The notes beneath the pieces were generated by a model. That model made no database searches. It was given only the letters and a program-made list of their open reading frames with translations, and was not told where the DNA came from. The position numbers and the translations under genes were made by a program. Of a DNA stretch of 64,000 nt, positions 3,948-26,930 are shown in pieces. Source of the DNA: Boseongicola sp. H5. Lineage in GTDB: Bacteria > Pseudomonadota > Alphaproteobacteria > Rhodobacterales > Rhodobacteraceae. The stretch lies in NCBI GenBank assembly GCA_020622165.1, contig JACNMN010000007.1:1-64000 (forward strand), written 5' to 3'. Position 1 is the stretch's first letter. Every line of letters begins with the position of its first letter.

Positions 3948-4958
3948 ATGAGCTGGATCTCAACGGGCGACAGGGCGCAGGCATTTCACATGTATCAACG
4001 CAGCGCCGAGGTGAAAACGGAAATGCTGCGGCTTACTTCCGAGCTCAGCAGCGGCCGGAAATCCGATCTGGGCAAGGCGTTGGGCGGCGATTTTGCAGGC
4101 CTCGCCGCGGTTGAACGCGGGCTCCGCCTCGGGCTGGTCTACAAGGCCGCCGCCGAAGAGGCGGCGCTTCATACCTCCGTGATGCAAGACGCGCTGCAGA
4201 CGGTCCAGACGCAGCTTGACGAAACGGGTCCTACCCTGCTGGCGGCCGTCGGTGCGGGATCGTCGAGCAATCTCGGCATTCTCGCGGTGGATAGCGGCGC
4301 CAAGCTTGATCTTGTCGTGAACGCGCTGAACGGCAGGATTGCGGGGCGCAGCCTGTTCAGCGGCGACAGGCCGGACCAGATCCCGTTGATCAGCGGCGAC
4401 GAAATGCTGGCGAATCTGGGCCCGTTGGTGGCCGGCGCCGCTACGGCACAGGACATGATCGCGATTGTGGAGGATTGGTTTCTGGCTCCGGGCGGCGGGT
4501 TCGAAACGACCGCCTATCGGGGCGGCACGTCTTCGGCGGCCGGCTTTACGGTCGGAGATGGCGACGTGATCGATGCAGATGTGTCGGCGCTTGCCCCGGA
4601 GATACGCGGAGCATTGGCCGCTTTCGCGCTGAGTGCGCTGGTCGGCAACGATCTGGGCCCCGCGGATGAGGCATCGCGGCGCACGCTCCTCGAAGCGGCT
4701 GCGACACGCATGATCGGCAGCCAGGGCGGATTGTCGAAGATCCGGGCCGAACTCGGCGCCGCCGAAGCCAGGATCGAAACCGCGCGCGTCCGGAATTCGG
4801 CGACGGAGACGGCACTGTCGATCGAGCACAACCGCCTGGTGAGGGCGGACCCCTATACGACCGCGACCGAACTGGAAGCGGTGCAAATGCAATTGGAAAG
4901 CCTCTTTGTCCTCACCTCGCGCATGGCGCGTCTTAACCTTACGGAGTTCCTGAGATGA
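3948..4958 (+). CDS. flgL: Flagellar hook-associated protein 3 FlgL
   Basis: This is the second hook-filament junction protein, the adaptor between FlgK and flagellin. The 336-residue product begins with a flagellin-like amphipathic helix (about residues 1-60, including LTSELSSGRKSDLGKALGGD) and ends with a coiled-coil-type helix (YTTATELEAVQMQLESLFVLTSRM) typical of FlgL and flagellin C-termini. It starts 2 bases after the flgK stop and its last codons overlap the flgI start by 4 bases, indicating translational coupling. Confidence 0.88.
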   Translation: MSWISTGDRAQAFHMYQRSAEVKTEMLRLTSELSSGRKSDLGKALGGDFAGLAAVERGLRLGLVYKAAAEEAALHTSVMQDALQTVQTQLDETGPTLLAAVGAGSSSNLGILAVDSGAKLDLVVNALNGRIAGRSLFSGDRPDQIPLISGDEMLANLGPLVAGAATAQDMIAIVEDWFLAPGGGFETTAYRGGTSSAAGFTVGDGDVIDADVSALAPEIRGALAAFALSALVGNDLGPADEASRRTLLEAAATRMIGSQGGLSKIRAELGAAEARIETARVRNSATETALSIEHNRLVRADPYTTATELEAVQMQLESLFVLTSRMARLNLTEFLR

Positions 4959-6058
4959 TGCGCATGCTTGCTTCCGCAATTCTGTTGATGCTGATGGCGG
5001 CCCAGGTCACGGCTTCTCCCATCCGCATCCGCGACCTTGTGGAATTCGACGGGGTCCGCGGGAATGATCTGATCGGCTATGGTCTCGTGGTGGGGCTGAA
5101 CGGTACCGGAGATGGTATTCGCAATGCGCCGTTCACCGAAGAAATCATGACCAACATCCTGGAACGCCTGGGCGTCAATGTCTCCGGAGAGCAATTCCGG
5201 CCACAGAATGTCGCGGCGGTCTTCGTCACCGCAAGCTTGCCGCCGTTTTCCCGTGCCGGCAGCCAGATCGATATCACCGTGTCGGCGATCGGCGATGCCG
5301 ACAGCCTCCTGGGGGGGACGCTGGTCATGACGCCGCTCACCGCGGCCGACGGCGAAATCTATGCCGTCGCACAAGGCACGGTCATCGCTGGCGGCGCTTC
5401 GGCGGAAGGGGATGGGGCGCGTGTGGTGCAAGGCGTGCCCACCGCGGGCGTCGTCCCCTCAGGGGCGCGGATCGAGCGCGAGGTCGAGTTCGACTTTTCC
5501 GCCCTTCAGGATATCCGCCTCGCCCTCCGCACGCCCGATTTCACCACAGCCGCCAGGATCGAAGGGGCAATCAATGCGGAATTTGGTCGCCGCGTCGCCG
5601 TCATGCTGGATTCGGGCACCGTCACCCTGGATGTGGCCGCCACCAGATCGGCCTCCCCGGCCCATGCGCTCAGCCGGGTCGAAAACCTGTTTGTCGAACC
5701 GGAAATCCGGGCCCGCGTGGTTGTCGATCAGCGCTCCGGCACAATCGTGATGGGCGAAGATGTACGGATTTCACGCGTGGCGATTGCGCAAGGAAACCTG
5801 ACCCTGCGGATCGAGGAGCGCCCGATCGCGGTGCAACCGAACCCGTTCGCGGAGGGCGAAACCGTGATCGTTCCCCGGACCAACGTGGATCTCGTCGAAG
5901 AGCCCGGAACAGGGCTTGCCGAAATCAGCGGCGGCACGTCCCTGTCGGAAGTTGTCGCGGGCCTGAATGCGCTTGGCGTGTCGCCCCGGGACATGATCGA
6001 CATTCTGAACAGCATCCAGGCGGCCGGCGCATTGCACGCCGAGTTCATCGTCCGCTGA
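4955..6058 (+). CDS. flgI: Flagellar basal body P-ring protein FlgI
   Basis: This periplasmic protein assembles into the P-ring around the rod. The 367-residue product has a Sec signal peptide (about residues 1-21, ending VTASP) followed by the highly conserved family start RIRDLVEFDGVRGNDLIGYG and GLVVGLNGTGD. Full family length is present, including the C-terminal INSIQAAGALHAE-like segment. It overlaps the flgL stop by 4 bases (ATGA) and is the last gene of the flgE-K-L-I block. It converges with the fliF operon across a 245-base gap. P-ring assembly also needs FlgA, encoded at 21258-21686. Confidence 0.96.
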   Translation: MMRMLASAILLMLMAAQVTASPIRIRDLVEFDGVRGNDLIGYGLVVGLNGTGDGIRNAPFTEEIMTNILERLGVNVSGEQFRPQNVAAVFVTASLPPFSRAGSQIDITVSAIGDADSLLGGTLVMTPLTAADGEIYAVAQGTVIAGGASAEGDGARVVQGVPTAGVVPSGARIEREVEFDFSALQDIRLALRTPDFTTAARIEGAINAEFGRRVAVMLDSGTVTLDVAATRSASPAHALSRVENLFVEPEIRARVVVDQRSGTIVMGEDVRISRVAIAQGNLTLRIEERPIAVQPNPFAEGETVIVPRTNVDLVEEPGTGLAEISGGTSLSEVVAGLNALGVSPRDMIDILNSIQAAGALHAEFIVR

Positions 6059-6303: not shown

Positions 6304-6789
6304 CTACAGGGCCTTCAAGACCCGCATGACGGCGCGGGCCTGCGCCCCCGGCAACTGCCGCAGAACCCGCGCGCGCAGAGCGGTGCTTTGCGGTTTGAGA
6401 AGATGCGCGATGACTGCGGGATGTTCGTTCATCAATGTTGCGTCATCGAGATTATCCGCCAACCGCGCCACCAGTGCGGGGGCCCCCGAAGGTGGATCGA
6501 GCGCGGGCGCAAGGGCGCGCACGAGTGCGTCGTCGGCATCCTCACCGGCCAGCAGACCCCGGTCGCGAAACCTCTGTATCAGACGGTTGCGTTGCCACTC
6601 GGTCACATCGCTGTCCGTCGGAGAGGATGTGTCGATGTTCAGGCTTGCCGCATCGGGGGAGCCTTTCCGAAAAGCCTCGAAGCGTTCCGGGCCCAGAAGA
6701 CCCAGCAGAACCCTCGCTTTGTCGGCCTTCCACTTGGAATCGCCGGCCGGGGCGGCGCTGGATCGTGGCTGCTCTGGATGCTGCACCAT
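6304..6789 (-). CDS. Short FliG-like flagellar protein lacking the torque domain
   Basis: The product is 161 residues and I know no named family of this size. Two stretches look like flagellar switch protein FliG. Near the N-terminus ADKARVLLGLLGPERFEAF resembles the FliG start (alanine-rich helix, then LG-E). At the C-terminus NEHPAVIAHLLKPQS with the following RQLPGAQARAVMR resembles the FliG middle domain, including the EHPQ motif that in known FliG contacts FliM. The charged C-terminal torque domain is missing, and FliG is normally about 330 residues. It is the last gene of the fliF-fliH-fliN-fliP operon, 12 bases after fliP, while the usual fliG place between fliF and fliH is empty. It could be a diverged mini-FliG or an unrelated helical protein. 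Homology rests on motif reading only. Confidence 0.55.
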   Translation of the reverse strand: MVQHPEQPRSSAAPAGDSKWKADKARVLLGLLGPERFEAFRKGSPDAASLNIDTSSPTDSDVTEWQRNRLIQRFRDRGLLAGEDADDALVRALAPALDPPSGAPALVARLADNLDDATLMNEHPAVIAHLLKPQSTALRARVLRQLPGAQARAVMRVLKAL

Positions 6790-6801
6790 GGTGATGTCCC
6801 T

Positions 6802-7539
6802 TCAGAAATAGCTGCGTACCAGCGCGCTGGTGATCAATGCCCAGCCATCCGCCACAACGAAAAACGCCAGCTTGAACGGCATCGAGACAATGGCCGGCGG
6901 CACCATCATCATGCCCATGGACATGAGGATCGCGGCAACGACCAGATCAATGATCAGAAACGGCAGGAAGATGAGGAATCCGATCTGGAAGGCGCGCTCG
7001 ACCTCGCTGAGCATGAAGGACGGGATCAGCACCGACGGGTCCGGCGACGCGTCGACCGGTGCGTTGCGCAACTCCATCATGCCCCGCAGGGTTTCGGGGT
7101 CGACTCGCGCCTCCATGAACGCGCGGAACGGCGCATAGGCCAGCGGGATCGCACTCTCCGGCGTCAGGGTGCCGTCGATCAACGGGGCGATACCTTGCGT
7201 GTAGGCATCCTGGAAAACGGGCGCCATCACGAAATAGGTCAGAAACAGGGCCAGGCTGACGATCAGCATGTTGGGGGGCGACTGCTGCAGGCCGATTGCC
7301 TGACGGAGGATCGAAAGAACGGTCACCACGAAGGGAAAGCACGTGATCATGACCGCAAGGCCGGGCGCAAGGCTGAGCACGGTAATCAGCGCAATCAGCT
7401 GAAGCGCGCGGGCGGTAAGAGAACCGCCATCGCCCATGTCGATGGAGATTTCCTGCGCCTGCGCGGTCTGGGTCGCAAGCAGCATGGCCAGCAGACCAAG
7501 GCAGGCGAGACAAAGCCCTTTATGCAGCATCGCCGGCAT
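6802..7539 (-). CDS. fliP: Flagellar type III export protein FliP
   Basis: This is a core membrane subunit of the FliPQR export gate. The 245-residue product has an N-terminal cleavable-type hydrophobic segment (about 1-29) and then the family hallmarks LQLIALITVLSLAPGLAVMI, CFPFVVTVLSILRQAIG and the C-terminal LIIDLVVAAILMSMGMMMVP. The length is normal. Its start overlaps the fliN end by 20 bases. FliR and FliQ, its partners, are encoded elsewhere in the cluster (17761-18537 and 23215-23481). Confidence 0.95.
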   Translation of the reverse strand: MPAMLHKGLCLACLGLLAMLLATQTAQAQEISIDMGDGGSLTARALQLIALITVLSLAPGLAVMITCFPFVVTVLSILRQAIGLQQSPPNMLIVSLALFLTYFVMAPVFQDAYTQGIAPLIDGTLTPESAIPLAYAPFRAFMEARVDPETLRGMMELRNAPVDASPDPSVLIPSFMLSEVERAFQIGFLIFLPFLIIDLVVAAILMSMGMMMVPPAIVSMPFKLAFFVVADGWALITSALVRSYF

Positions 7540-7798
7540 CCACGACCTTGGTCAGACGGACGGCGAGTTGCCCGCCATTGTCGCCATCCAGCTCGACCAG
7601 TTCGCCGATCGCCACCAGCCGGTCGCCGACAATCACCTCGACCTCGTCTTCGATCCGCCGATCCAGCGGCAGGACCGTATCGCGTTCCATCGACAGAAGC
7701 TCGGCGATTGTCGGGTGCGCGCGCCCGACGCAAACCCGCATCTCGATGGGGACGCCGCGCAATGCGCCTTTGGCGGGAAGGGCGGTGGGATCGGACAT
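7520..7798 (-). CDS. fliN: Flagellar motor switch protein FliN
   Basis: This is a C-ring component that works with FliM and FliG in switching and export. The 92-residue product is essentially one SpoA-type domain: GVPIEMRVCVGRAHPTIAEL, followed by LDRRIEDEVEVIVGDRLVAIGELVE, the typical FliN core. The short length fits alphaproteobacterial FliN. It lies between fliH and fliP with 1-base and 20-base overlaps. It is the only unambiguous switch component in the window, since no fliM and no full-length fliG are present. Confidence 0.92.
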   Translation of the reverse strand: MSDPTALPAKGALRGVPIEMRVCVGRAHPTIAELLSMERDTVLPLDRRIEDEVEVIVGDRLVAIGELVELDGDNGGQLAVRLTKVVDAGDAA

Positions 7799-8415
7799 CA
7801 GGCTGATCTCTCGTGTTGCTGAGGTAGGTCGTCGTCACTGTTCAGGGTGAAATCGCGGATGGCTTGCGCAATCCGTTCGGTCGCGGCGCCCAGGTCGATT
7901 TCGCGCAACTCGGCTCCGAACCGCAGGGTGACATGGCCCTCGAAATAGGCAGGCTCGGGGACAATCCGGATCTCGGCCTCCGCGTGTTCGGCGACAAGGG
8001 CCTCCAGAGCCGGACAGGCCGCGGGCGATGCCAGGATTTCACATGTCTCATCCGGCAGCGTTCCGAGAATCGATGCCAGTTCGGCGCGCACCATGGGAAC
8101 CATTGCGGCGGCCGCGACCTCCGGCACCAGACGCTCGATGATCCCGTCCAGCAGCGCCTGAAGACCTTTCAGAACATCGTTCCGGGCCTCCAGATATGTG
8201 AAGCTGAGATCCTTCAGGTTTCGGCTCAGGTCGGCACCGATCTGCGCCCGTCCCTGCTGCTCCGCACTCAGGCAATCGTCCCACCCGTCGCGATACCCGC
8301 TCTCGAACGCATCGAGCTTTATCGCCTCAAGATCGTGATGCACCGACGCGGGCGCCACGCTTTCCGGCGCGGGCGGTTGCCCGAACTCCTCCAGGTCCAG
8401 CCGGCGGGCGCTCAT
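7798..8415 (-). CDS. fliH: Flagellar assembly protein FliH-like
   Basis: This is probably the FliH regulator of the FliI export ATPase, linking it to the C-ring. The 205-residue product has a helical middle (about 35-110, rich in Glu, Asp and Leu, including YRDGWDDCLSAEQQGRAQIG) and an alpha/beta C-terminal half with FEGHVTLRFG near the end, as in FliH/YscL proteins. Sequence conservation in this family is low, so the call leans on position: it directly follows fliF (4-base ATGA overlap) and precedes fliN. FliI itself is at 24656-25978. Confidence 0.75.
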   Translation of the reverse strand: MSARRLDLEEFGQPPAPESVAPASVHHDLEAIKLDAFESGYRDGWDDCLSAEQQGRAQIGADLSRNLKDLSFTYLEARNDVLKGLQALLDGIIERLVPEVAAAAMVPMVRAELASILGTLPDETCEILASPAACPALEALVAEHAEAEIRIVPEPAYFEGHVTLRFGAELREIDLGAATERIAQAIRDFTLNSDDDLPQQHERSA

Positions 8416-10088
8416 GCGGGTTCCTCGTCTTCTTCCATCCAGCCCCGCAGGATTTCGACGGTTTCGTCTTCACGTTCTTCGATAAGTCGCCGCAGGCGTT
8501 CCACGGGGTCGGCCACCGCATTGGAAACAGCCGGCAATCCCGGCGTGCCCGCCTCGGTATCGGCTGCGGCAACGTCCGAACCAGAGCCGTCCGAGGGTGA
8601 TTGCGACGGATCGTATCCAAGCATCTGGGCCGAAGCGGCGCCGTCCGCCGCGGATTGCGTGGGGACAAGCGCCCCTTGCGACAGGGCGGGCGTCAATGGC
8701 AGGCCACGGGGGCTCTCCGCCGCGGCCATTGGCGGGCGGCTCAGGATCGGCCGGATCAGTCCGAACGCGATGGCCAGTGCAACAGCCGCAAGGATCATCA
8801 GCTGGGCAAGCCGCATCATGTCGAGTTGCGCAAGCAGGCCGTTGCCACCGCCCTCGATCAGCTCACCGGCGGGCAATTCCTCGAATGCCATGGAGCGGAT
8901 CGTCACCTGGTCGCCGCGCTCGGCGTCATACCCGATCGCGGACCGCACGAGTTGTTCCAGCGCATCTATTTCTTCCGGGTCGCGCGGCTCGATCACCTCA
9001 AGCCCGTCAGCGTTCACACGCGGGACGCCATTGACCAGAACGGCCACGCTGATCCGGCGAATGCCACCGGGTTCCAGCTCGATTTCGCGCTGGGTTTCGG
9101 ATACGTCGAAAGTCACGCGCTCACGGGTTTCGCTTGTCTCCGCCCGCGAGTTTTGGCCCTCCCCGGCCGCATCGCCATCGGGCAGGTTGGAGGCCACGGT
9201 GACCGCGCCCGATGCCGCGTCGCTGGAACTGTTCGACATTTCCTCCGTATCGGTGGCGATGATGATCCGGCTTTCGGGATCGATCCGCCGCTCGACAATC
9301 GTCTCATGGGCGGTGTTCAGATCCACGCTGACTTCGACCACCGCATTGTCCCGGCCCACACGCGCCGCCAGCAATCGTTCGATATTGCGCCGCAACTCCT
9401 CGGAGCGATTCGCCGCATCGGCGCCCGGCATGTCCAATTCGCTTGCACCGAGGATCTGCCCGCTATCCGCGTCGATGACGGTTACGTTTTCCGGAAGAAG
9501 GCCCGGCACGGAGGAGGCGACCAGAAATCGCAGGGCGCGAGCATGACCCGACCCGATGCCGCCGGCCGCCGGGCGGACTGCGACAGAGGCGGTGACCTCG
9601 GCGCGGTCCTGAAACGGATCGTTGCCGGGGTTGGCAAGATGCACGCGGGCGGCGCGGATTTGCGGGCTGGCCAGGATGGTGCGGGCCAGTTCCCCTTCCT
9701 TGGCGCGCCAATACGCGGCATCGAACATCTGCGACGTCGTCCCGAAACCGGAAAGCGAATCAAGCAGCTCGTATCCGGCGGCGCCATTTGCCGGCAGTCC
9801 CTCGCCAGCCAGGGACATCCGCAATTCGTCGCGCCGCGCCTGATCGACATAGATGGCGTCGCCCCGAATCGAATGGGCGACCCCGCGCGCTTCCAGCGCT
9901 GCGATGACCTCTCCTGCGGCAGTTGGCTCCAGACCGGAATACAGCAGGACATAGCTGGGTGTCGTCGCAAGGCGGGACAAGATAATCAGCACCACCACAA
10001 GGGCCGCCAACCCGCCCAGGAAAAGTGCCTTTCGGCGTGTTTCCAACGTCATCCAATAGAGACTGAGCTGCTCCACCTGAAACCTCAT
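8412..10088 (-). CDS. fliF: Flagellar MS-ring protein FliF
   Basis: This protein forms the membrane-supramembrane ring that templates the basal body. The 558-residue product has a first membrane helix at about residues 20-42 (FLGGLAALVVVLIILSRLAT), the YscJ/FliF ring-building region (YVLLYSGLEPTAAGEVIAAL, then YWRAKEGELARTI), a variable linker, and a second membrane helix near residue 440 (RLAQLMILAAVALAIAFGLI). The last residues are acidic (ETVEILRGWMEEDEEPA), the usual FliG-binding tail. It heads a minus-strand operon and is divergent from fliL across 113 bases that hold a CtrA-like site. Confidence 0.95.
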   Translation of the reverse strand: MRFQVEQLSLYWMTLETRRKALFLGGLAALVVVLIILSRLATTPSYVLLYSGLEPTAAGEVIAALEARGVAHSIRGDAIYVDQARRDELRMSLAGEGLPANGAAGYELLDSLSGFGTTSQMFDAAYWRAKEGELARTILASPQIRAARVHLANPGNDPFQDRAEVTASVAVRPAAGGIGSGHARALRFLVASSVPGLLPENVTVIDADSGQILGASELDMPGADAANRSEELRRNIERLLAARVGRDNAVVEVSVDLNTAHETIVERRIDPESRIIIATDTEEMSNSSSDAASGAVTVASNLPDGDAAGEGQNSRAETSETRERVTFDVSETQREIELEPGGIRRISVAVLVNGVPRVNADGLEVIEPRDPEEIDALEQLVRSAIGYDAERGDQVTIRSMAFEELPAGELIEGGGNGLLAQLDMMRLAQLMILAAVALAIAFGLIRPILSRPPMAAAESPRGLPLTPALSQGALVPTQSAADGAASAQMLGYDPSQSPSDGSGSDVAAADTEAGTPGLPAVSNAVADPVERLRRLIEEREDETVEILRGWMEEDEEPA

Positions 10089-10201: not shown

Positions 10202-10711
10202 ATGGCCGCCGCAGCAGATCCGGATATTGACGAGGCGCCGAAAAAGCGGGGCCTGATGATGCCATTGTTGATTGGCCTGTTTCTGGCCGCAGCGGCAGGG
10301 GGCGGTGGGTTCTGGGCGGTTACCCAGGGGCCGCTTGCCGGGATGTTCTCCCATTCCGAAACGGATGACGAGGAGGCCCATGACGAGGCCGAGCGTCCGG
10401 CCGAGTACACGCCCGTGGCATTCGTTCCGCTTGAGACGCTGATCGTCTCCCTGGGGTCGGAGGCCGCGGGCCAGCATCTTATCGTATCCGCCGAACTGGA
10501 GGTGGATCCCGCCTATGCAGATGAGGTCACGACCCTGTCGCCACGGGTTCTGGACGTGCTCAACAGCTATCTCCGGGTCATCGACCTGCGGGAGCTGAGT
10601 GAACCGACCAGCCTGATCCGGTTGCGCGCGCAGATGTTGCGCCGGGTGCAGGTCGTGACCGGGGACGGTCGTGTGCGTGACCTCCTGATAACCCAATTCG
10701 TGGTGAACTGA
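10202..10711 (+). CDS. fliL: Flagellar basal body-associated protein FliL
   Basis: FliL surrounds and stabilises the stator units at the basal body. The 169-residue product has a short cytoplasmic N-terminus, one membrane helix (about 19-40, MMPLLIGLFLAAAAGGGGFW), an acidic linker, and a periplasmic stomatin/SPFH-like domain with LETLIVSLGSEAAGQHLIVS and a C-terminal VRDLLITQFVVN, as expected for FliL. It is first in an operon with a DUF6468-like gene, motE and motA, and its stop overlaps the next start by one base (TGATG). A second FliL-like gene is at 19954-20490. Confidence 0.9.
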   Translation: MAAAADPDIDEAPKKRGLMMPLLIGLFLAAAAGGGGFWAVTQGPLAGMFSHSETDDEEAHDEAERPAEYTPVAFVPLETLIVSLGSEAAGQHLIVSAELEVDPAYADEVTTLSPRVLDVLNSYLRVIDLRELSEPTSLIRLRAQMLRRVQVVTGDGRVRDLLITQFVVN

Positions 10712-11229
10712 TGACGGTTTTTCTGACTTTTCTCGCAGATGCTCTCATGGTGGTCGCCGCCCTTGGCGCAGCGCTCTATTGCTTCATTCTGTCCCGCCGG
10801 CTGATCCGGCTGAGCAGTATCGACAAGGGTCTTGGCGGGGCGATTGCCGTCCTGTCCGCCCAAGTCGACGATATGAACAAGGCGCTGGAAGCGGCGAAGT
10901 CGGAGTCTGACTCCGCCGCCTCCCATCTTCAGGATCTGACACACCAGGCTCGCGAGATCGCAAGTGATCTGGAACTGATGATCGCCGCCTGCCACGATGT
11001 GGCGGCCCCCGAACCAACCGGTGACGCCGTGCTTGCCGATGACGCTCAGCCGCATCCGGGGGAGGAGTTCTCCGCACTCCCCGAAGAGGACACGGACCCG
11101 GAGGCCGAAGACCCCGCAACGGAAATTCCGCTTTTCGCCCGCCGACGGCCCGCGCCCGAACCGGAAGAGCAGAGCGCGCAGCCTGTGTTCCGCCATCGCC
11201 GCTCCGGGCAGGTCGAGGCCGCACAATGA
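10711..11229 (+). CDS. DUF6468-like membrane protein of the flagellar operon
   Basis: The 172-residue product has one N-terminal membrane helix (about 5-28, LTFLADALMVVAALGAALYC), an RRLIRLS turn, and a long coiled-coil-type helix (about 45-95) followed by a disordered Pro/Glu-rich tail. This architecture matches what I recall as DUF6468, a domain found beside fliL and motE in alphaproteobacterial flagellar operons; no biochemical function is known to me. It is coupled to fliL (1-base overlap) and motE (4-base overlap), so a role at the stator or basal body is inferred from context. Confidence 0.7.
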   Translation: MTVFLTFLADALMVVAALGAALYCFILSRRLIRLSSIDKGLGGAIAVLSAQVDDMNKALEAAKSESDSAASHLQDLTHQAREIASDLELMIAACHDVAAPEPTGDAVLADDAQPHPGEEFSALPEEDTDPEAEDPATEIPLFARRRPAPEPEEQSAQPVFRHRRSGQVEAAQ

Positions 11230-11840
11230 GTGGCGCCAAGATCCTCCGGCGAAGCCGCTGGCGCCAGAGAAGCGTTTTGCTCGTGCTCGCGCTCGCCTTC
11301 GTGACCTCCGGCATCCTTCGCCTTGGCACAATGGATATCGCATGGGCGTCGGCCACCGAAACGCACGACATGACGGGCGATGAAACCGGCCTCATGTGCC
11401 CGACAACCGCACCACTCAGCGAAGCCCTTGCATTGGTCCACCGGCGGGCGGAAATGCTGGACCGGCGGGAAGCCGAACTTGACGGACGCGAGCAGGCGAT
11501 TGCCGCTGCGCAAACCCTGGTCGAAGATCGCCTTGCCGAGCTGGCAGATCTGGAAGCGCGGCTGGAAACGCTTCTGGCCCTGTCCGACAGCGCGGCTGAG
11601 AACGATCTTGGCCAACTGACACAGGTCTATGAGACCATGCGCCCCGAAACCGCCGCGGCCTTGTTCGAACAGATGGAGCCCAGTTTCGCCGCAGGGTTTC
11701 TGGCCCGAATGCGGCCCGAAGCAGGTGCGGCTCTTCTCGCCGAGATGCCACCCGAAACCGCCTATTCCATCTCGGTGCTCATGGCCACGCGCAACGCCTC
11801 CGCGCCGCGATTTGCCGAGGGCGACGACACTGAAAATTAA
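11226..11840 (+). CDS. motE: MotE-family protein (MgtE N-domain-like)
   Basis: MotE is a periplasmic chaperone-like partner of the stator in alphaproteobacteria, first described as stabilising MotC in rhizobia. The 204-residue product has an N-terminal signal or anchor helix (about 15-38), a coiled-coil region (about 70-120, AEMLDRREAELDGREQAIAA) and a C-terminal MgtE-N-like helical module: YETMRPETAAALFEQMEP, then ARMRPEAGAALLAEMPPETA. It overlaps its upstream neighbour by 4 bases and lies 48 bases before motA, consistent with stator function. Confidence 0.82.
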   Translation: MSGAKILRRSRWRQRSVLLVLALAFVTSGILRLGTMDIAWASATETHDMTGDETGLMCPTTAPLSEALALVHRRAEMLDRREAELDGREQAIAAAQTLVEDRLAELADLEARLETLLALSDSAAENDLGQLTQVYETMRPETAAALFEQMEPSFAAGFLARMRPEAGAALLAEMPPETAYSISVLMATRNASAPRFAEGDDTEN

Positions 11841-11888: not shown

Positions 11889-12761
11889 ATGATCGGCCTT
11901 GTTGGCATTCTCATCGTTTTCGCAACCGTGTTCGGCGGCTATCTCGCCGCGGGCGGGAAGCTGGGCATTATCCTCAAATCGCTGCCTTACGAATTCACCA
12001 TGATCGCCGGGGCGGCGGCGGGCGCCTTCGTCATTTCGAACCATACATCGGGCGTGAAACACACGATGAAGGATATGAAGAAGGTCTTCAAAGGGCCGCA
12101 TTGGAAACCGGATGACTACCGGGATCTTCTGTGCCTGCTGTTCGAACTGATCCGCCTTGGCCGACAGAATGCCGTCGCGCTGGAAGAACACACAGAATCG
12201 CCGGAGACGTCCGAGATATTCGGCCGCTACCCCAAGATCCTTGCCGACCACGAAGCGGTCGACATGATTTGCGATACCCTGCGCTCGGCCTCGATGAATT
12301 ACGACGATCCGCATCAGGTAGAAGAAGTTCTGGAAAAAAGGCTCGAGTCAAAGCTCCATCATGCAATGCATTCGACCCACGCGCTGCAATCGGTGGCCGA
12401 CGGGCTCCCGGCTCTGGGTATCGTGGCGGCGGTTCTTGGGGTGATCAAGACAATGAGTTCGATCGACCAGCCGCCCGAGATTCTCGGCAAGATGATCGGC
12501 GGGGCGCTGGTCGGCACGTTTCTGGGTGTGTTTCTCGCCTACGGACTCGTGGGGCCATTTTCGACCCGGCTCAAATCCGTGGTCGAAGACGATCAGAACT
12601 TCTATGTCCTGATCCGCGAGGTTCTGGTCGCCAATCTGTTCAATCACGCCACGAATATCTGCATCGAGGTCGGGCGCCAGAACACGCCAAGCCACATTCG
12701 CCCGTCCTTCAACGAACTCGAAGACTCCCTGAAATCCTTGAAACAGGCCGCCGCGGCATGA
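11889..12761 (+). CDS. motA: Flagellar motor stator protein MotA
   Basis: This is the channel-forming stator subunit that converts proton flow to torque with MotB. The 290-residue product shows the MotA pattern: N-terminal helices (GLVGILIVFATVFGGYLAAG, then GKLGIILKSLPYEFTMIAG), a cytoplasmic charged loop with ALEEHTESPE, and the C-terminal pair of membrane helices (GLPALGIVAAVLGVIKTM and MIGGALVGTFLGVFLAYGLV). It has the family length. Its stop overlaps the start of the next gene (ATGA), tying the downstream unknown protein to the stator. Confidence 0.95.
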   Translation: MIGLVGILIVFATVFGGYLAAGGKLGIILKSLPYEFTMIAGAAAGAFVISNHTSGVKHTMKDMKKVFKGPHWKPDDYRDLLCLLFELIRLGRQNAVALEEHTESPETSEIFGRYPKILADHEAVDMICDTLRSASMNYDDPHQVEEVLEKRLESKLHHAMHSTHALQSVADGLPALGIVAAVLGVIKTMSSIDQPPEILGKMIGGALVGTFLGVFLAYGLVGPFSTRLKSVVEDDQNFYVLIREVLVANLFNHATNICIEVGRQNTPSHIRPSFNELEDSLKSLKQAAAA

Positions 12762-14875
12762 TCCGCGCAGCCGTCAGTCTGACGGTCTGGCTATTTGGGG
12801 CCGGGCTGGCATGGGGGCAGGCAGCGGCGGTTCAGTCGGGCGAACATGACGGCTATACCCGGTTGGTCCTGCCGATCGGAAGTGAGCGGGACTGGGACGT
12901 CGGCGGGGAGGGAGAGATCCGCCGGATCACCTTCACCCCGGATGTACCCGTGCTCGATCTCTCCCGCGTTTTCGACCGGGCCAGCCGCAACCGCCTTGCC
13001 GATATCGCCCTTGCAGACGAACTCACGCTTTCGCTTGCCTGCGATTGCGAGCTGCGTCTGTTCCGGTATCGCGACCGGTTCCTCGTGGTCGATATCGTCG
13101 ATGCGGAGCCCGGGCCGCCCGCCGGAACGGAAGACCCCGCGCTGACGGACACATCGACGGGGACGGGTGCGGAACTTCCGATCCTCCCAAATCCCTTTGG
13201 CGCGCGGCAGATGACGCTGGACATCGCCCAGGATGCAGCTTCGCCCCTGCGAACCGGCCCGGAACAAGACCGTCAACTCGATCAGGCCGCAAATCTGCTG
13301 GCCGAGCAATTGGCGCGGGCCTCGTCCGCCGGGCTGCTGGAGGTTGCCCCGATGCAGCCACTTTCGGCGGCGGATCCGACGCCTTCGATCGGGACGGAAC
13401 CCGGTGAACCGGCACCGGCTGATGACCACGTCGCAACTGAGGAGGGGTCACATCCGACGGTCGAAGATGAACAGACGGCGGCGGCGCCTGAACCCGGCCT
13501 CGCCTTGCGGGCCGAAACCGCCTTCGATCTGAGCCGTCACGCCCGTGACGATCCCGCACCGATAGAGAGACCCCTGTCCTGCGCGCCAGGCAGTGAACTC
13601 GATATCTCAAGCTGGGCCAGCGGGACCGGGTTTGAGCAGGAGATCGGCTGGCTTCGGGCCAGGCTATATGACGAGCGGGATCAATTGGTAACCGAGGCGG
13701 CCGTCGATCTTGCACAATATTACATCTACCACGGCTTCGGTGCAGAGGCGGTTTTCTGGCTCGGTCAGGTCCAGGACGCTCCGCCCGCGCTGATGTCCAT
13801 GGCGCTGTATCTGACGGATGCCGAAGGGCCCGTCTTCAGCGAGATCGAAACCACAGCCGCTTGTAGCAGTACCGAGATTCTGTGGCGTTATCTCGACAAT
13901 CCGGACGGGCCGGCTCCCGGCGAGGAGGAAACCCGTTTTCTGCTGCGCGCCTTCGCCAGCCTGCCGCGCGGGTTGCGCGATATTCTCGGACCGCGACTTG
14001 TGCGCAAGTTTCTCGCCGATGATCGCACCGCATCTGCCCAAGAGGTGCGCAACGCTCTGCTCCGCGGCGACCGCTTGTCCGACACGGAGCAATTCCTGGT
14101 CGATATGGATGTGGCGCAAACACCGGATCCGGAGACGACACGAGTGAATCTGGAAGAGGTGATGCGCAGCGATACCCGAAACGCCCCCGAAGCGATGCGG
14201 CGCTATCTTGCATTGCACCGCGAAGACGGAAGTGTCGTTGGCCCTGAAAGGCTGACCGTGGCGGATGCCTTGCTGCGAGAGACCGGCGGGAGGCCGGAGC
14301 CGGGCACGCTTTGGCATGAAACACTTCTGGCGCACGCCGCGGCGGGCAATCTCGGGCGCGCGCTCGAACTGGCCGCGCTGGCGACCGATCCCGATATCGA
14401 GCAGGGGATACTTTCGGATCTTTTCGCGCAACACGCTGCAAATGCGGATCTGGCGGGGCTTGTCCTGCTGGCGACGGCACGCGCGGATCAATGGGATCAG
14501 GATCGCGCGACTGCGCCTCTTCGTCAGGAGATTGCGCGCCGGTTTCTGGAGGCCGGTTTACAGGAACTGGCCTTCAGGGTCGCGCCCCCCGGGGTTCCGA
14601 TCGACCCGCCTGAAACCGTACCAACGGACACACCGGCCGAGAGTGGTCTGGCATCGGCATGGCGTCGCGGCGACTGGTCCGCCGTTGCCGGAATGCCTGC
14701 CGGCCCACATGCGGAGTTCGCGGGACTGGTCGCCACCCTGCCCGCAGACGGCACGCCCGCACCCTCGATCCAGGATCTGACGGTCGTCAGCCGAACAGTC
14801 TCCGATAGCGCGGCGACCCGGGCCCTTGTCGAAACCATCCTGAACAGCCCGCCCACGATTTCAGTGCCGGACTAA
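12758..14875 (+). CDS. Large secreted protein of unknown function, cotranscribed with motA
   Basis: I do not recognise this 705-residue product. It has a Sec signal peptide (about 1-20, ending GLAWGQ), then a beta-rich N-terminal domain (about 27-115) with GYTRLVLPIGS and ELRLFRYRDRFLVVDIVD that resembles an AMIN-type fold. A disordered Pro/Glu/Thr-rich linker follows (about 120-255), then a long helical region (about 285-705) with TPR- or Sel1-like periodicity. The open frame extends far upstream through motA; the ATG at 12758 is chosen because it gives a clean signal peptide and a 4-base ATGA overlap with motA. AMIN domains are known to bind the cell wall, so a periplasmic stator or peptidoglycan role is plausible but unproven. 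Confidence 0.7.
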   Translation: MIRAAVSLTVWLFGAGLAWGQAAAVQSGEHDGYTRLVLPIGSERDWDVGGEGEIRRITFTPDVPVLDLSRVFDRASRNRLADIALADELTLSLACDCELRLFRYRDRFLVVDIVDAEPGPPAGTEDPALTDTSTGTGAELPILPNPFGARQMTLDIAQDAASPLRTGPEQDRQLDQAANLLAEQLARASSAGLLEVAPMQPLSAADPTPSIGTEPGEPAPADDHVATEEGSHPTVEDEQTAAAPEPGLALRAETAFDLSRHARDDPAPIERPLSCAPGSELDISSWASGTGFEQEIGWLRARLYDERDQLVTEAAVDLAQYYIYHGFGAEAVFWLGQVQDAPPALMSMALYLTDAEGPVFSEIETTAACSSTEILWRYLDNPDGPAPGEEETRFLLRAFASLPRGLRDILGPRLVRKFLADDRTASAQEVRNALLRGDRLSDTEQFLVDMDVAQTPDPETTRVNLEEVMRSDTRNAPEAMRRYLALHREDGSVVGPERLTVADALLRETGGRPEPGTLWHETLLAHAAAGNLGRALELAALATDPDIEQGILSDLFAQHAANADLAGLVLLATARADQWDQDRATAPLRQEIARRFLEAGLQELAFRVAPPGVPIDPPETVPTDTPAESGLASAWRRGDWSAVAGMPAGPHAEFAGLVATLPADGTPAPSIQDLTVVSRTVSDSAATRALVETILNSPPTISVPD

Positions 14876-26012: not shown

Positions 26013-26150
26013 ATGATTAGATCACCCGTCATACGCAACATCAGCGCAGGAGGATCTGCGGCATCCTGCGTGCCTCAAATCAACGGCAACGCAAGCACGA
26101 GAGCAAATGCTAACCAAGCGACTCCGTCAATGTCAGAGCGCACCTTGTAG
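26013..26150 (+). CDS. Possible small protein gene after fliI (uncertain)
   Basis: This is an open frame of 45 codons starting ATG at 26013, with an unusually good ribosome binding site (GAGGAGG at 25997-26003, 9 bases before the start). The product would be polar and Ser/Asn/Ala-rich (RNISAGGSAASCVPQINGNA) with no signal or membrane segment. Its last 18 bases overlap the 3' end of the convergent gene ending at 26133. I recognise no family; it could be chance. Confidence 0.2.
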   Translation: MIRSPVIRNISAGGSAASCVPQINGNASTRANANQATPSMSERTL

Positions 26151-26930
26151 CAATGTGAGCGCGATCGCAGCAGGCGAATTGACGCCGGCAAAGCTGTTGA
26201 GCTGTGATCGGGTCAGAAACGCCTGGATCAGCTCTTCGACCTGTTCCGGTTCGCGAAACTGCGCGATGTCGGAATCGCCCAGGACCTGATCGCTCCGCTC
26301 TTTGAACGTGTTCAACTGCTGGTCGAGATCGAGACCACCAACACCGGATGGCAGACCAAGCGCGGTTTCGAAGATCTTGCGCAGGGGCGGATTGCCCATG
26401 ATGGTAAACCACGCCGCATCATTGGTAAGATCTCGCCCGGCAATCTCGGGCAACTCACGTGTCGCCGTAAGCGCCAGGCGCATGTCCTCGTTTTGGGTAC
26501 CGATGGCCCTTTCGAACTCCTGCCGCTCGAATCTCGCCAGAATCCGGTCGGCAAATCCGGGCGTCCCGGATTTGGGCGGCAAAGAGGTCCCAAAGCCGAA
26601 TGCTTCCGAAAAGGCACGATATCTCTTGTCCGCCAAACGGTTCGCCAATGCATCGCCCTCGGCGGCACCTTCGGCCAGAACCGTGCGAATGAAGGCCTTG
26701 TTCGGCACGTCGTCCTGAAGGCCGAAGGCGCCAAGCGCCACCCGCAGCAGCCGGAAATCACCAACGAGGTCATCGGCGCTTTTGACCGCGCCGATGTTTT
26801 CCCGAAAGTACGCCATGTCCCGGTCAAGAGCGGGCGATGCCGCGAAGGCCGCCGTTTGCTCCGGCAGCGTACGGCTCAGGAACGTCCAACCGGAATAGCC
26901 GGCAAATGGCACGAAAGGCTGAAAGGTCAT
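26133..26930 (-). CDS. DUF1217-type flagellar protein
   Basis: The 265-residue product begins with a short hydrophobic or aromatic stretch (FQPFVPFAGYSGWTFLSRTL) and is then helical, with DVPNKAFIRTVLAEGAAEGD, LADKRYRAFSEAFGFG and a C-terminal EQVEELIQAFLTRSQLNSFA. This pattern is what I know as DUF1217, found once or more in alphaproteobacterial flagellar clusters, usually near flbT/flaF; some relatives were proposed to be secreted or rod/hook-associated. Its start overlaps the flbT stop by 4 bases, so it is cotranscribed with flbT-flaF. Molecular role unknown. Confidence 0.75.
   Translation of the reverse strand: MTFQPFVPFAGYSGWTFLSRTLPEQTAAFAASPALDRDMAYFRENIGAVKSADDLVGDFRLLRVALGAFGLQDDVPNKAFIRTVLAEGAAEGDALANRLADKRYRAFSEAFGFGTSLPPKSGTPGFADRILARFERQEFERAIGTQNEDMRLALTATRELPEIAGRDLTNDAAWFTIMGNPPLRKIFETALGLPSGVGGLDLDQQLNTFKERSDQVLGDSDIAQFREPEQVEELIQAFLTRSQLNSFAGVNSPAAIALTLLQGAL

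What the first reader, a model, noticed from the sequence alone, without database searches (positions are those of the whole stretch)
6304..6789. Mini-FliG candidate: FliG-like ends, no torque domain, at an unusual place
The 161-residue product carries a FliG-like N-terminal stretch and a FliG middle-domain stretch with an EHPQ-like motif (EHPA), which in known FliG contacts FliM, but it ends before the C-terminal charged torque domain. Full-length fliG is missing from its normal position between fliF and fliH and from the whole cluster, and fliM is missing too. Either the true fliG and fliM are elsewhere and this is an accessory switch-binding protein, or rotor architecture is rearranged. No downstream frame on the minus strand continues it, so it does not look like a simple frameshift.
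Basis: partly seen in the sequence, partly recalled or inferred. Interest (0 to 1): 0.7.

Follow-up and report, generated by a model that had tools for sequence, protein, structure and literature searches.

The report
Shrunken flagellar rotor gene (mini-FliG)
The small gene looks like a cut-down, still conserved copy of the flagellar rotor gene fliG, sitting where some relatives carry the full-length gene while this genome's full-length copy lies elsewhere; what it does in the motor is untested.

Summary
The 161-aa ORF (6304-6789, minus) is real, conserved and FliG-derived. Its family profile aligns colinearly with FliG N and M domains (hhalign 52.6; 20 of 20 column shuffles at most 15.5) and finds full-length FliGs elsewhere in the class. 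It ends inside the M domain; there is no torque domain. Full-length FliG and a divergent FliM lie elsewhere in the same genome.

The position is not odd: in 18 family genomes full-length fliG sits directly after fliP. In 12 of 394 (plus Rhodophyticola porphyridii) a mini-FliG sits there and FliG lies elsewhere.

In-slot FliGs keep the FliM-docking motif EHPQ (17 of 18) and their FliMs keep GG (17 of 18); relocated FliGs lack EHPQ (0 of 45) and the FliMs checked lack that GG (0 of 16). Minis keep E-H/N-P-A (13 of 13). dN/dS is 0.19 in one species pair.

Best reading: a stub left when fliG was duplicated and moved, kept as a small C-ring accessory. The direction of the move, binding and phenotype are inferred, not shown. 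New variant of a known kind.

The parts
6304..6789 (-). mini-FliG ORF, 161 aa
   Evidence: 12 other family members at the same site; dN/dS 0.19 against R. porphyridii
6550..6732 (-). FliG_N-like segment, about residues 20-80 (approximate bounds)
   Evidence: hhalign with in-slot FliG starts in the N domain; profile aligned to 3hjl FliG from residue 4; not seen by Pfam
6322..6435 (-). FliG_M-like segment, residues 119-156 (profile positions 8-45 of 76)
   Evidence: Pfam FliG_M E 3.6e-4, below cut-off; 12 of 13 members match at E <= 1
6415..6426 (-). EHPA, residues 122-125, at the place of FliG's EHPQ
   Evidence: E, P and A invariant in 13 of 13, H in 12 of 13
6796..6801 (-). AGGGAC, possible ribosome-binding site directly after the fliP stop codon
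   Evidence: sequence read; inference from sequence
6802..7539 (-). fliP, gene immediately upstream of the mini-FliG ORF
   Evidence: named from recall of the family and its similarity across genomes; anchor of the slot survey
7520..7798 (-). fliN (FliMN_C, E 1.2e-17)
7798..8415 (-). fliH by position and similarity in relatives
   Evidence: no FliH match in Pfam
8412..10088 (-). fliF
   Evidence: Pfam YscJ_FliF 8e-47
4955..6058 (+). flgI, convergent neighbour closing the slot

Best explanation
The ORF is a shortened FliG paralogue, most likely the stub of a fliG that once stood in this slot (order fliF-fliH-fliN-fliP-fliG). In an ancestor fliG was duplicated and the full-length copy came to lie elsewhere; the copy in the slot lost the second half of the M domain and the torque-bearing C domain, and kept about half of N plus the EHP-bearing half of M, joined by a variable linker. 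It was kept as the last gene after fliP in the window genome and 11 other sampled genera, and is absent from most others with relocated FliG. Shown here: homology to FliG N+M, shared slot, distribution, constraint between two species. Inferred: the direction and order of events; that it is made together with fliF-fliP; [quoted passage not shown] It cannot carry torque.
For: Homology: profile-profile score 52.6 (E 5.4e-7, prob 92%) against in-slot FliG across N and M; 43.6 and 44.4 against relocated and fla2 FliGs, M only; 20 of 20 column shuffles at most 15.5. The 13-member profile matches 35 genomes outside the family; in 28 of 29 loci read the same ORF is full-length FliG, mostly aligned from its N end. 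Top PDB sequence hit is full-length FliG 3hjl, profile 10-163 to residues 4-164, E 0.0056. Slot: 18 genomes carry full-length FliG directly after fliP; G101 shows fliF-fliN-fliP-fliG then convergent flgI; G170 and G321, of a distant flagellar type, also have fliP-fliG (G170). All 12 mini genomes have a full-length FliG elsewhere, and these 12 FliGs form one clade (94/94). Relocated FliGs nest beside the in-slot FliGs of G004 and G338 (98/86). G169 has a 187-aa N+M-like stub in the slot plus a full FliG elsewhere. Shared letters: the Gly and Arg of LPGxxAR are in 13 of 13 minis and in 32 and 33 of 45 relocated FliGs, against 2 and 2 of 18 in-slot and 0 of 9 fla2 FliGs. Constraint: dN/dS 0.19; residues 99-161 identical between the two species.
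Against: Members alone score poorly: FliG_M below cut-off and no FliG_N for the window protein, no NCBIfam match, and no FliG match at all in Pfam for the G169 stub (its match to the mini profile is E 0.003). The AlphaFold model is too poor to use (pLDDT 53, pTM 0.39, two-sequence alignment); Foldseek gave nothing below E 0.8. The FliP tree does not show the in-slot state as ancestral: in-slot genomes form one clade (94/86) inside an unresolved set, the root lies on a very long outgroup branch, and minis need three changes there, whereas the FliG tree has in-slot FliGs in two groups and minis' FliGs in one; fliG moving into the slot in one lineage is not excluded. In the mini genomes' own FliGs the Gly/Arg letters are in only 1 and 1 of 12. 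The M-domain tree placing minis near relocated FliGs has 63 columns and long branches and disagrees with the hhalign ranking. No unrelated helical family was run as an hhalign control. No binding, expression or phenotype data. Most sampled relatives do without the gene. dN/dS is from one pair.
Confidence: 0.55

Rival explanations
1. Split switch: the mini supplies the EHP docking surface that the relocated FliG has lost, so the FliM-contacting function now sits on a separate chain.
For: E-H/N-P-A kept in 13 of 13 minis while the 12 relocated FliGs of the mini genomes searched lack EHPQ.
Against: The 33 relocated FliGs read from other genomes also lack EHPQ, and where their slots were examined (77 of 90 fliP loci with neither mini nor FliG) no mini was found; FliM has changed its GG as well. 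So the loss does not depend on the mini.
Confidence: 0.2
2. An MgtE_N or MotE-like helical-repeat protein recruited to the slot, resembling FliG_M by convergence.
For: 3 of 13 members weakly match MgtE_N (best 0.0013).
Against: Colinear N+M alignment with FliG, position where fliG sits in relatives, N+M-like stub in G169, FliG_M match in 12 of 13.
Confidence: 0.07
3. Decaying pseudogene remnant with no function.
For: Truncated, faster evolving than most neighbours, absent from most relatives sampled.
Against: Open frame in 13 of 13, eight invariant residues, dN/dS 0.19 similar to the gene at the CP2 position (0.20), no change in the last 63 residues between two species.
Confidence: 0.1
4. The slot was not the original home of fliG: fliG entered it once in the in-slot lineage, and the mini arose from a separate duplication that also landed after fliP.
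For: On the FliP tree the in-slot genomes are one clade, not shown to be basal (94/86).
Against: Needs two arrivals at the same place; the distant type in G170 and G321 also has fliP-fliG; relocated FliGs nest next to in-slot ones in the FliG tree (98/86).
Confidence: 0.15

Closest known systems
FliG, in-slot type (e.g. locus L026/L161 of genome G276)
   Same: Same place after fliP, same order of N and M segments, EHP motif
   Different: 362 aa with full N, M and C domains; the mini lacks the rest of M and all of C
Relocated FliG of the same genome (L001)
   Same: FliG family
   Different: Full length (355 aa), ESAE instead of EHPQ, no fliP beside it
Spirochaete FliG1, a second FliG (recalled, not tested)
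   Same: A second FliG copy with a role apart from torque
   Different: Recalled as near full length
CP1-CP4 of Rhodobacterales fla1 clusters (PMC12363192: abstract, sections 7 and 9, and passages seen)
   Same: Lineage-specific small proteins of the same flagellar system
   Different: In the locus tags given there flgI and fliP carry consecutive numbers, so no gene is listed between them; by position the mini is none of CP1-4

Membership tests
FliG | FliG_N domain | tested here: inconclusive
   No Pfam FliG_N match; profile-profile and 3hjl alignments cover it
FliG | FliG_M domain with EHPQ | tested here: inconclusive
   First half of M only, EHPA, below Pfam cut-off for the window protein; 12 of 13 members match at E <= 1
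FliG | C-terminal torque domain with charged helix | tested here: not met
   No FliG_C match; none in the 245 bp that follow
FliG | Binds FliF and FliM in the C ring | not testable with these tools
   No binding assay; one-chain structure model too poor
FliG-derived paralogue (kinship only) | Colinear homology and shared genomic slot | tested here: met
MgtE_N / MotE-like | MgtE_N domain above cut-off | tested here: not met
   No match for the window protein at E <= 10; 3 of 13 members match weakly, best 0.0013

The most novel reading that the evidence does not exclude
A rotor whose FliG has been split by gene duplication: the torque-bearing FliG lost the FliM-docking EHPQ motif, while a separate small protein after fliP keeps an EHP-bearing half M domain and docks on FliM or caps the FliG ring.
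Probability: 0.2. Interest if true: 0.8.

Novelty: new variant of a known kind. Interest (0 to 1): 0.5.

Why it matters
FliG is usually treated as one fixed three-domain rotor protein. Within one bacterial family the slot after fliP is seen in three states: full-length FliG with EHPQ (and FliM with GG), mini-FliG with FliG elsewhere, and neither with FliG elsewhere. That gives a natural series for asking how the FliG-FliM contact, described in print as EHPQ with GGXG (PMC4642947, passages), can be lost or rewired, and whether part of FliG can serve as a separate accessory. The mini gene is a small target for a motility test.

Tried and rejected
Frameshifted or broken full-length fliG: rejected, no room and no FliG_C trace before flgI. 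Missing fliG/fliM: rejected. A PF02154 FliM search of the own genome found nothing; the FliMN_C search and homology to the FliM of G276, which matches PF02154 (6.9e-17), point to the divergent FliM. Plasmid collection: no match. Structure: a two-sequence alignment gave pLDDT 53; Foldseek listed haemoglobins first and FliG or C-ring chains at ranks 11, 13, 14, 24 and 27, all E 1.5 or worse; counted as inconclusive. PDB sequence search with the window protein alone gave no FliG. Mini as CP1: rejected by position. Literature: no paper describing a truncated FliG in this slot was seen in the listings; one search returned unrelated 'flight' papers, so it is a weak search. CP2, CP3 and CP4 in the window are named by gene order only. 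Gene names fliP, flgI, fliH, motA and so on in the window rest on recall and cluster position except where a Pfam call is given.

Counting notes. Of 27 matching genomes, 12 carry minis, 1 an in-slot FliG (G276), 12 matched FliG elsewhere and 2 matched neither. The 90 fliP loci are the 30 best matches plus 60 fetched out of about 155 listed places (308 genomes had fliP), so they lean towards closer relatives: 10 hold a mini, 1 a weak stub (G169), 2 an in-slot FliG, 77 neither. flgI was seen as neighbour in 9 of the 12 mini genomes; in 3 the fetched flank did not show it. The 45 relocated FliGs are 12 of mini genomes, 12 others, G169 and 20 fetched by match coordinates only, whose surroundings I did not read; one of the 45, in G344, has EHPA. 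G093 (EHAQ, no fliP in its flank) was kept apart, as were G170 and G321 (EHEQ, EHDQ). Of the 16 FliMs without the GG, 12 are from mini genomes and 4 from others; G344 there reads TGG, one place off; the in-slot exception is G101 (TG), whose FliG has EHPQ. These counts follow the tree and are not independent events. A second family search with the 13-member profile (183 genomes, drawn from the same sample) found the 4 minis already known there plus 8 longer frames that I did not read. L210 was not confirmed as FliG. Trees: FliP bootstrap had not settled; G169's FliG is a long branch and two rows had odd make-up.

Full report
The ORF. Window 6304-6789 (minus) encodes 161 aa, starting 12 bp after the fliP stop with AGGGAC in between. 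The gene order is fliF-fliH-fliN-fliP-ORF, then the convergent flgI. This resembles the fla1-type cluster described for Rhodobacterales; in Phaeobacter inhibens fliG lies outside that cluster and its transposon mutants do not swim (PMC12363192: abstract, sections 7 and 9, passages).

fliG and fliM are present. The own genome has a FliG_C match over cut-off in a 355-aa protein on contig C1 with FliG_N, FliG_M and FliG_C. A 362-aa FliMN_C protein, also on C1, has homologues in all 17 genomes searched, its own included. The homologue in G276 matches the Pfam FliM model; the window genome's does not.

The mini family. A profile of five members searched against 394 family genomes gave 27 matching genomes; 12 carry a short ORF directly after fliP. 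With R. porphyridii this makes 13 members. L70, E122, P124, A125, L143, L146, G148 and R152 are invariant; H123 is kept in 12 of 13. Much of the length variation lies in the linker and the ends.

It is FliG-derived. The mini alignment matches in-slot FliG over N and M (score 52.6), and relocated and fla2 FliG over M only (43.6, 44.4); 20 column-shuffled versions reached at most 15.5. Searched against 385 genomes of the class, the 13-member profile matched 35 besides the window's own, all in frames of 338 aa or more; of 29 loci read, 28 are full-length FliG. The best solved-structure match by sequence is full-length FliG 3hjl, E 0.0056. Evidence from single sequences is weak, and the structure model is not usable.

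The slot. Searching with the FliG of G276 separates a group of 18 genomes whose FliG lies directly after fliP. Longer stretches of five of these show fliF-fliN-fliP-fliG, with convergent flgI seen in G101; G170, of a distant flagellar type, has the same order. In the FliG tree (55 rows, rooted on fla2) in-slot FliGs are not one clade. The relocated FliGs nest beside those of G004 and G338 (98/86), with a long stem, and the 12 FliGs from mini genomes form one clade (94/94). G169 has both a relocated FliG and a 187-aa stub in the slot; its FliP joins the in-slot clade (99/99). The simplest history is duplication and relocation of fliG, shortening of the copy left behind, and loss of the stub in most lineages. 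Against this, the FliP tree puts all 18 in-slot genomes in one clade (94/86), does not resolve its place, and needs three changes for the minis, so the direction is not settled. A 63-column M-domain tree groups the 13 minis (97/93) on the side of the relocated FliGs, but long branches make this weak.

The docking motifs. EHPQ is present in 17 of 18 in-slot FliGs (the other has EHAQ), in 9 of 9 fla2 FliGs and in 0 of 45 relocated ones. At the matching FliM place GG is kept in 17 of 18 in-slot genomes (exception G101) and in 0 of 16 other genomes checked, 12 with a mini and 4 without. EHPQ and GGXG are described in print as the FliG-FliM contact (PMC4642947, passages). Since genomes without a mini show the same change, the mini does not explain it. 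The minis keep E-H/N-P-A in 13 of 13, and share the Gly and Arg of LPGxxAR with 32 and 33 of 45 relocated FliGs, though with only 1 and 1 of the 12 in their own genomes.

Selection and function. Against R. porphyridii dN/dS is 0.19, close to the gene at the CP2 position (0.20) and higher than fliP (0.04). The last 63 residues are identical in the two species. The protein is therefore probably made and used. Its closeness to fliP and its EHP-bearing half M domain make a role at the C ring the most likely one, as an accessory touching FliM or FliG; this step is inference.

Noticed in passing
G000 contig C1:129.7-130.7 kb (L005): Divergent FliM homologue that the Pfam FliM model misses. That R. 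sphaeroides has different FliM proteins for its two flagella is in print; I saw only the title in a reference list.
   Followed up: partly
window 11226-11837: Gene at the CP3 position matches MgtE_N over cut-off (6.9e-7) and FliG_M weakly (0.0016): another FliG_M-like stretch in the cluster.
   Followed up: partly
window 10711-11226: Gene at the CP2 position matches DUF6468 (1.5e-8).
   Followed up: no
window 26136-26930: DUF1217 protein (5.2e-44).
   Followed up: no
window 12758-14875: 705-aa protein at the CP4 position with no Pfam match at E 0.01.
   Followed up: no
L179 (G093): FliG with EHAQ and no fliP in its flank, branching beside the relocated FliGs; a possible intermediate of the motif loss.
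   Followed up: no
G267:C10 and G344:C363: In these two genomes the divergent fliM and the relocated fliG lie within about 2 kb of each other, unlike the window genome, where they are about 56 kb apart.
   Followed up: no
G167: The one other genome of the window's genus in the sample has no match to the mini, FliP or FliG queries.
   Followed up: no
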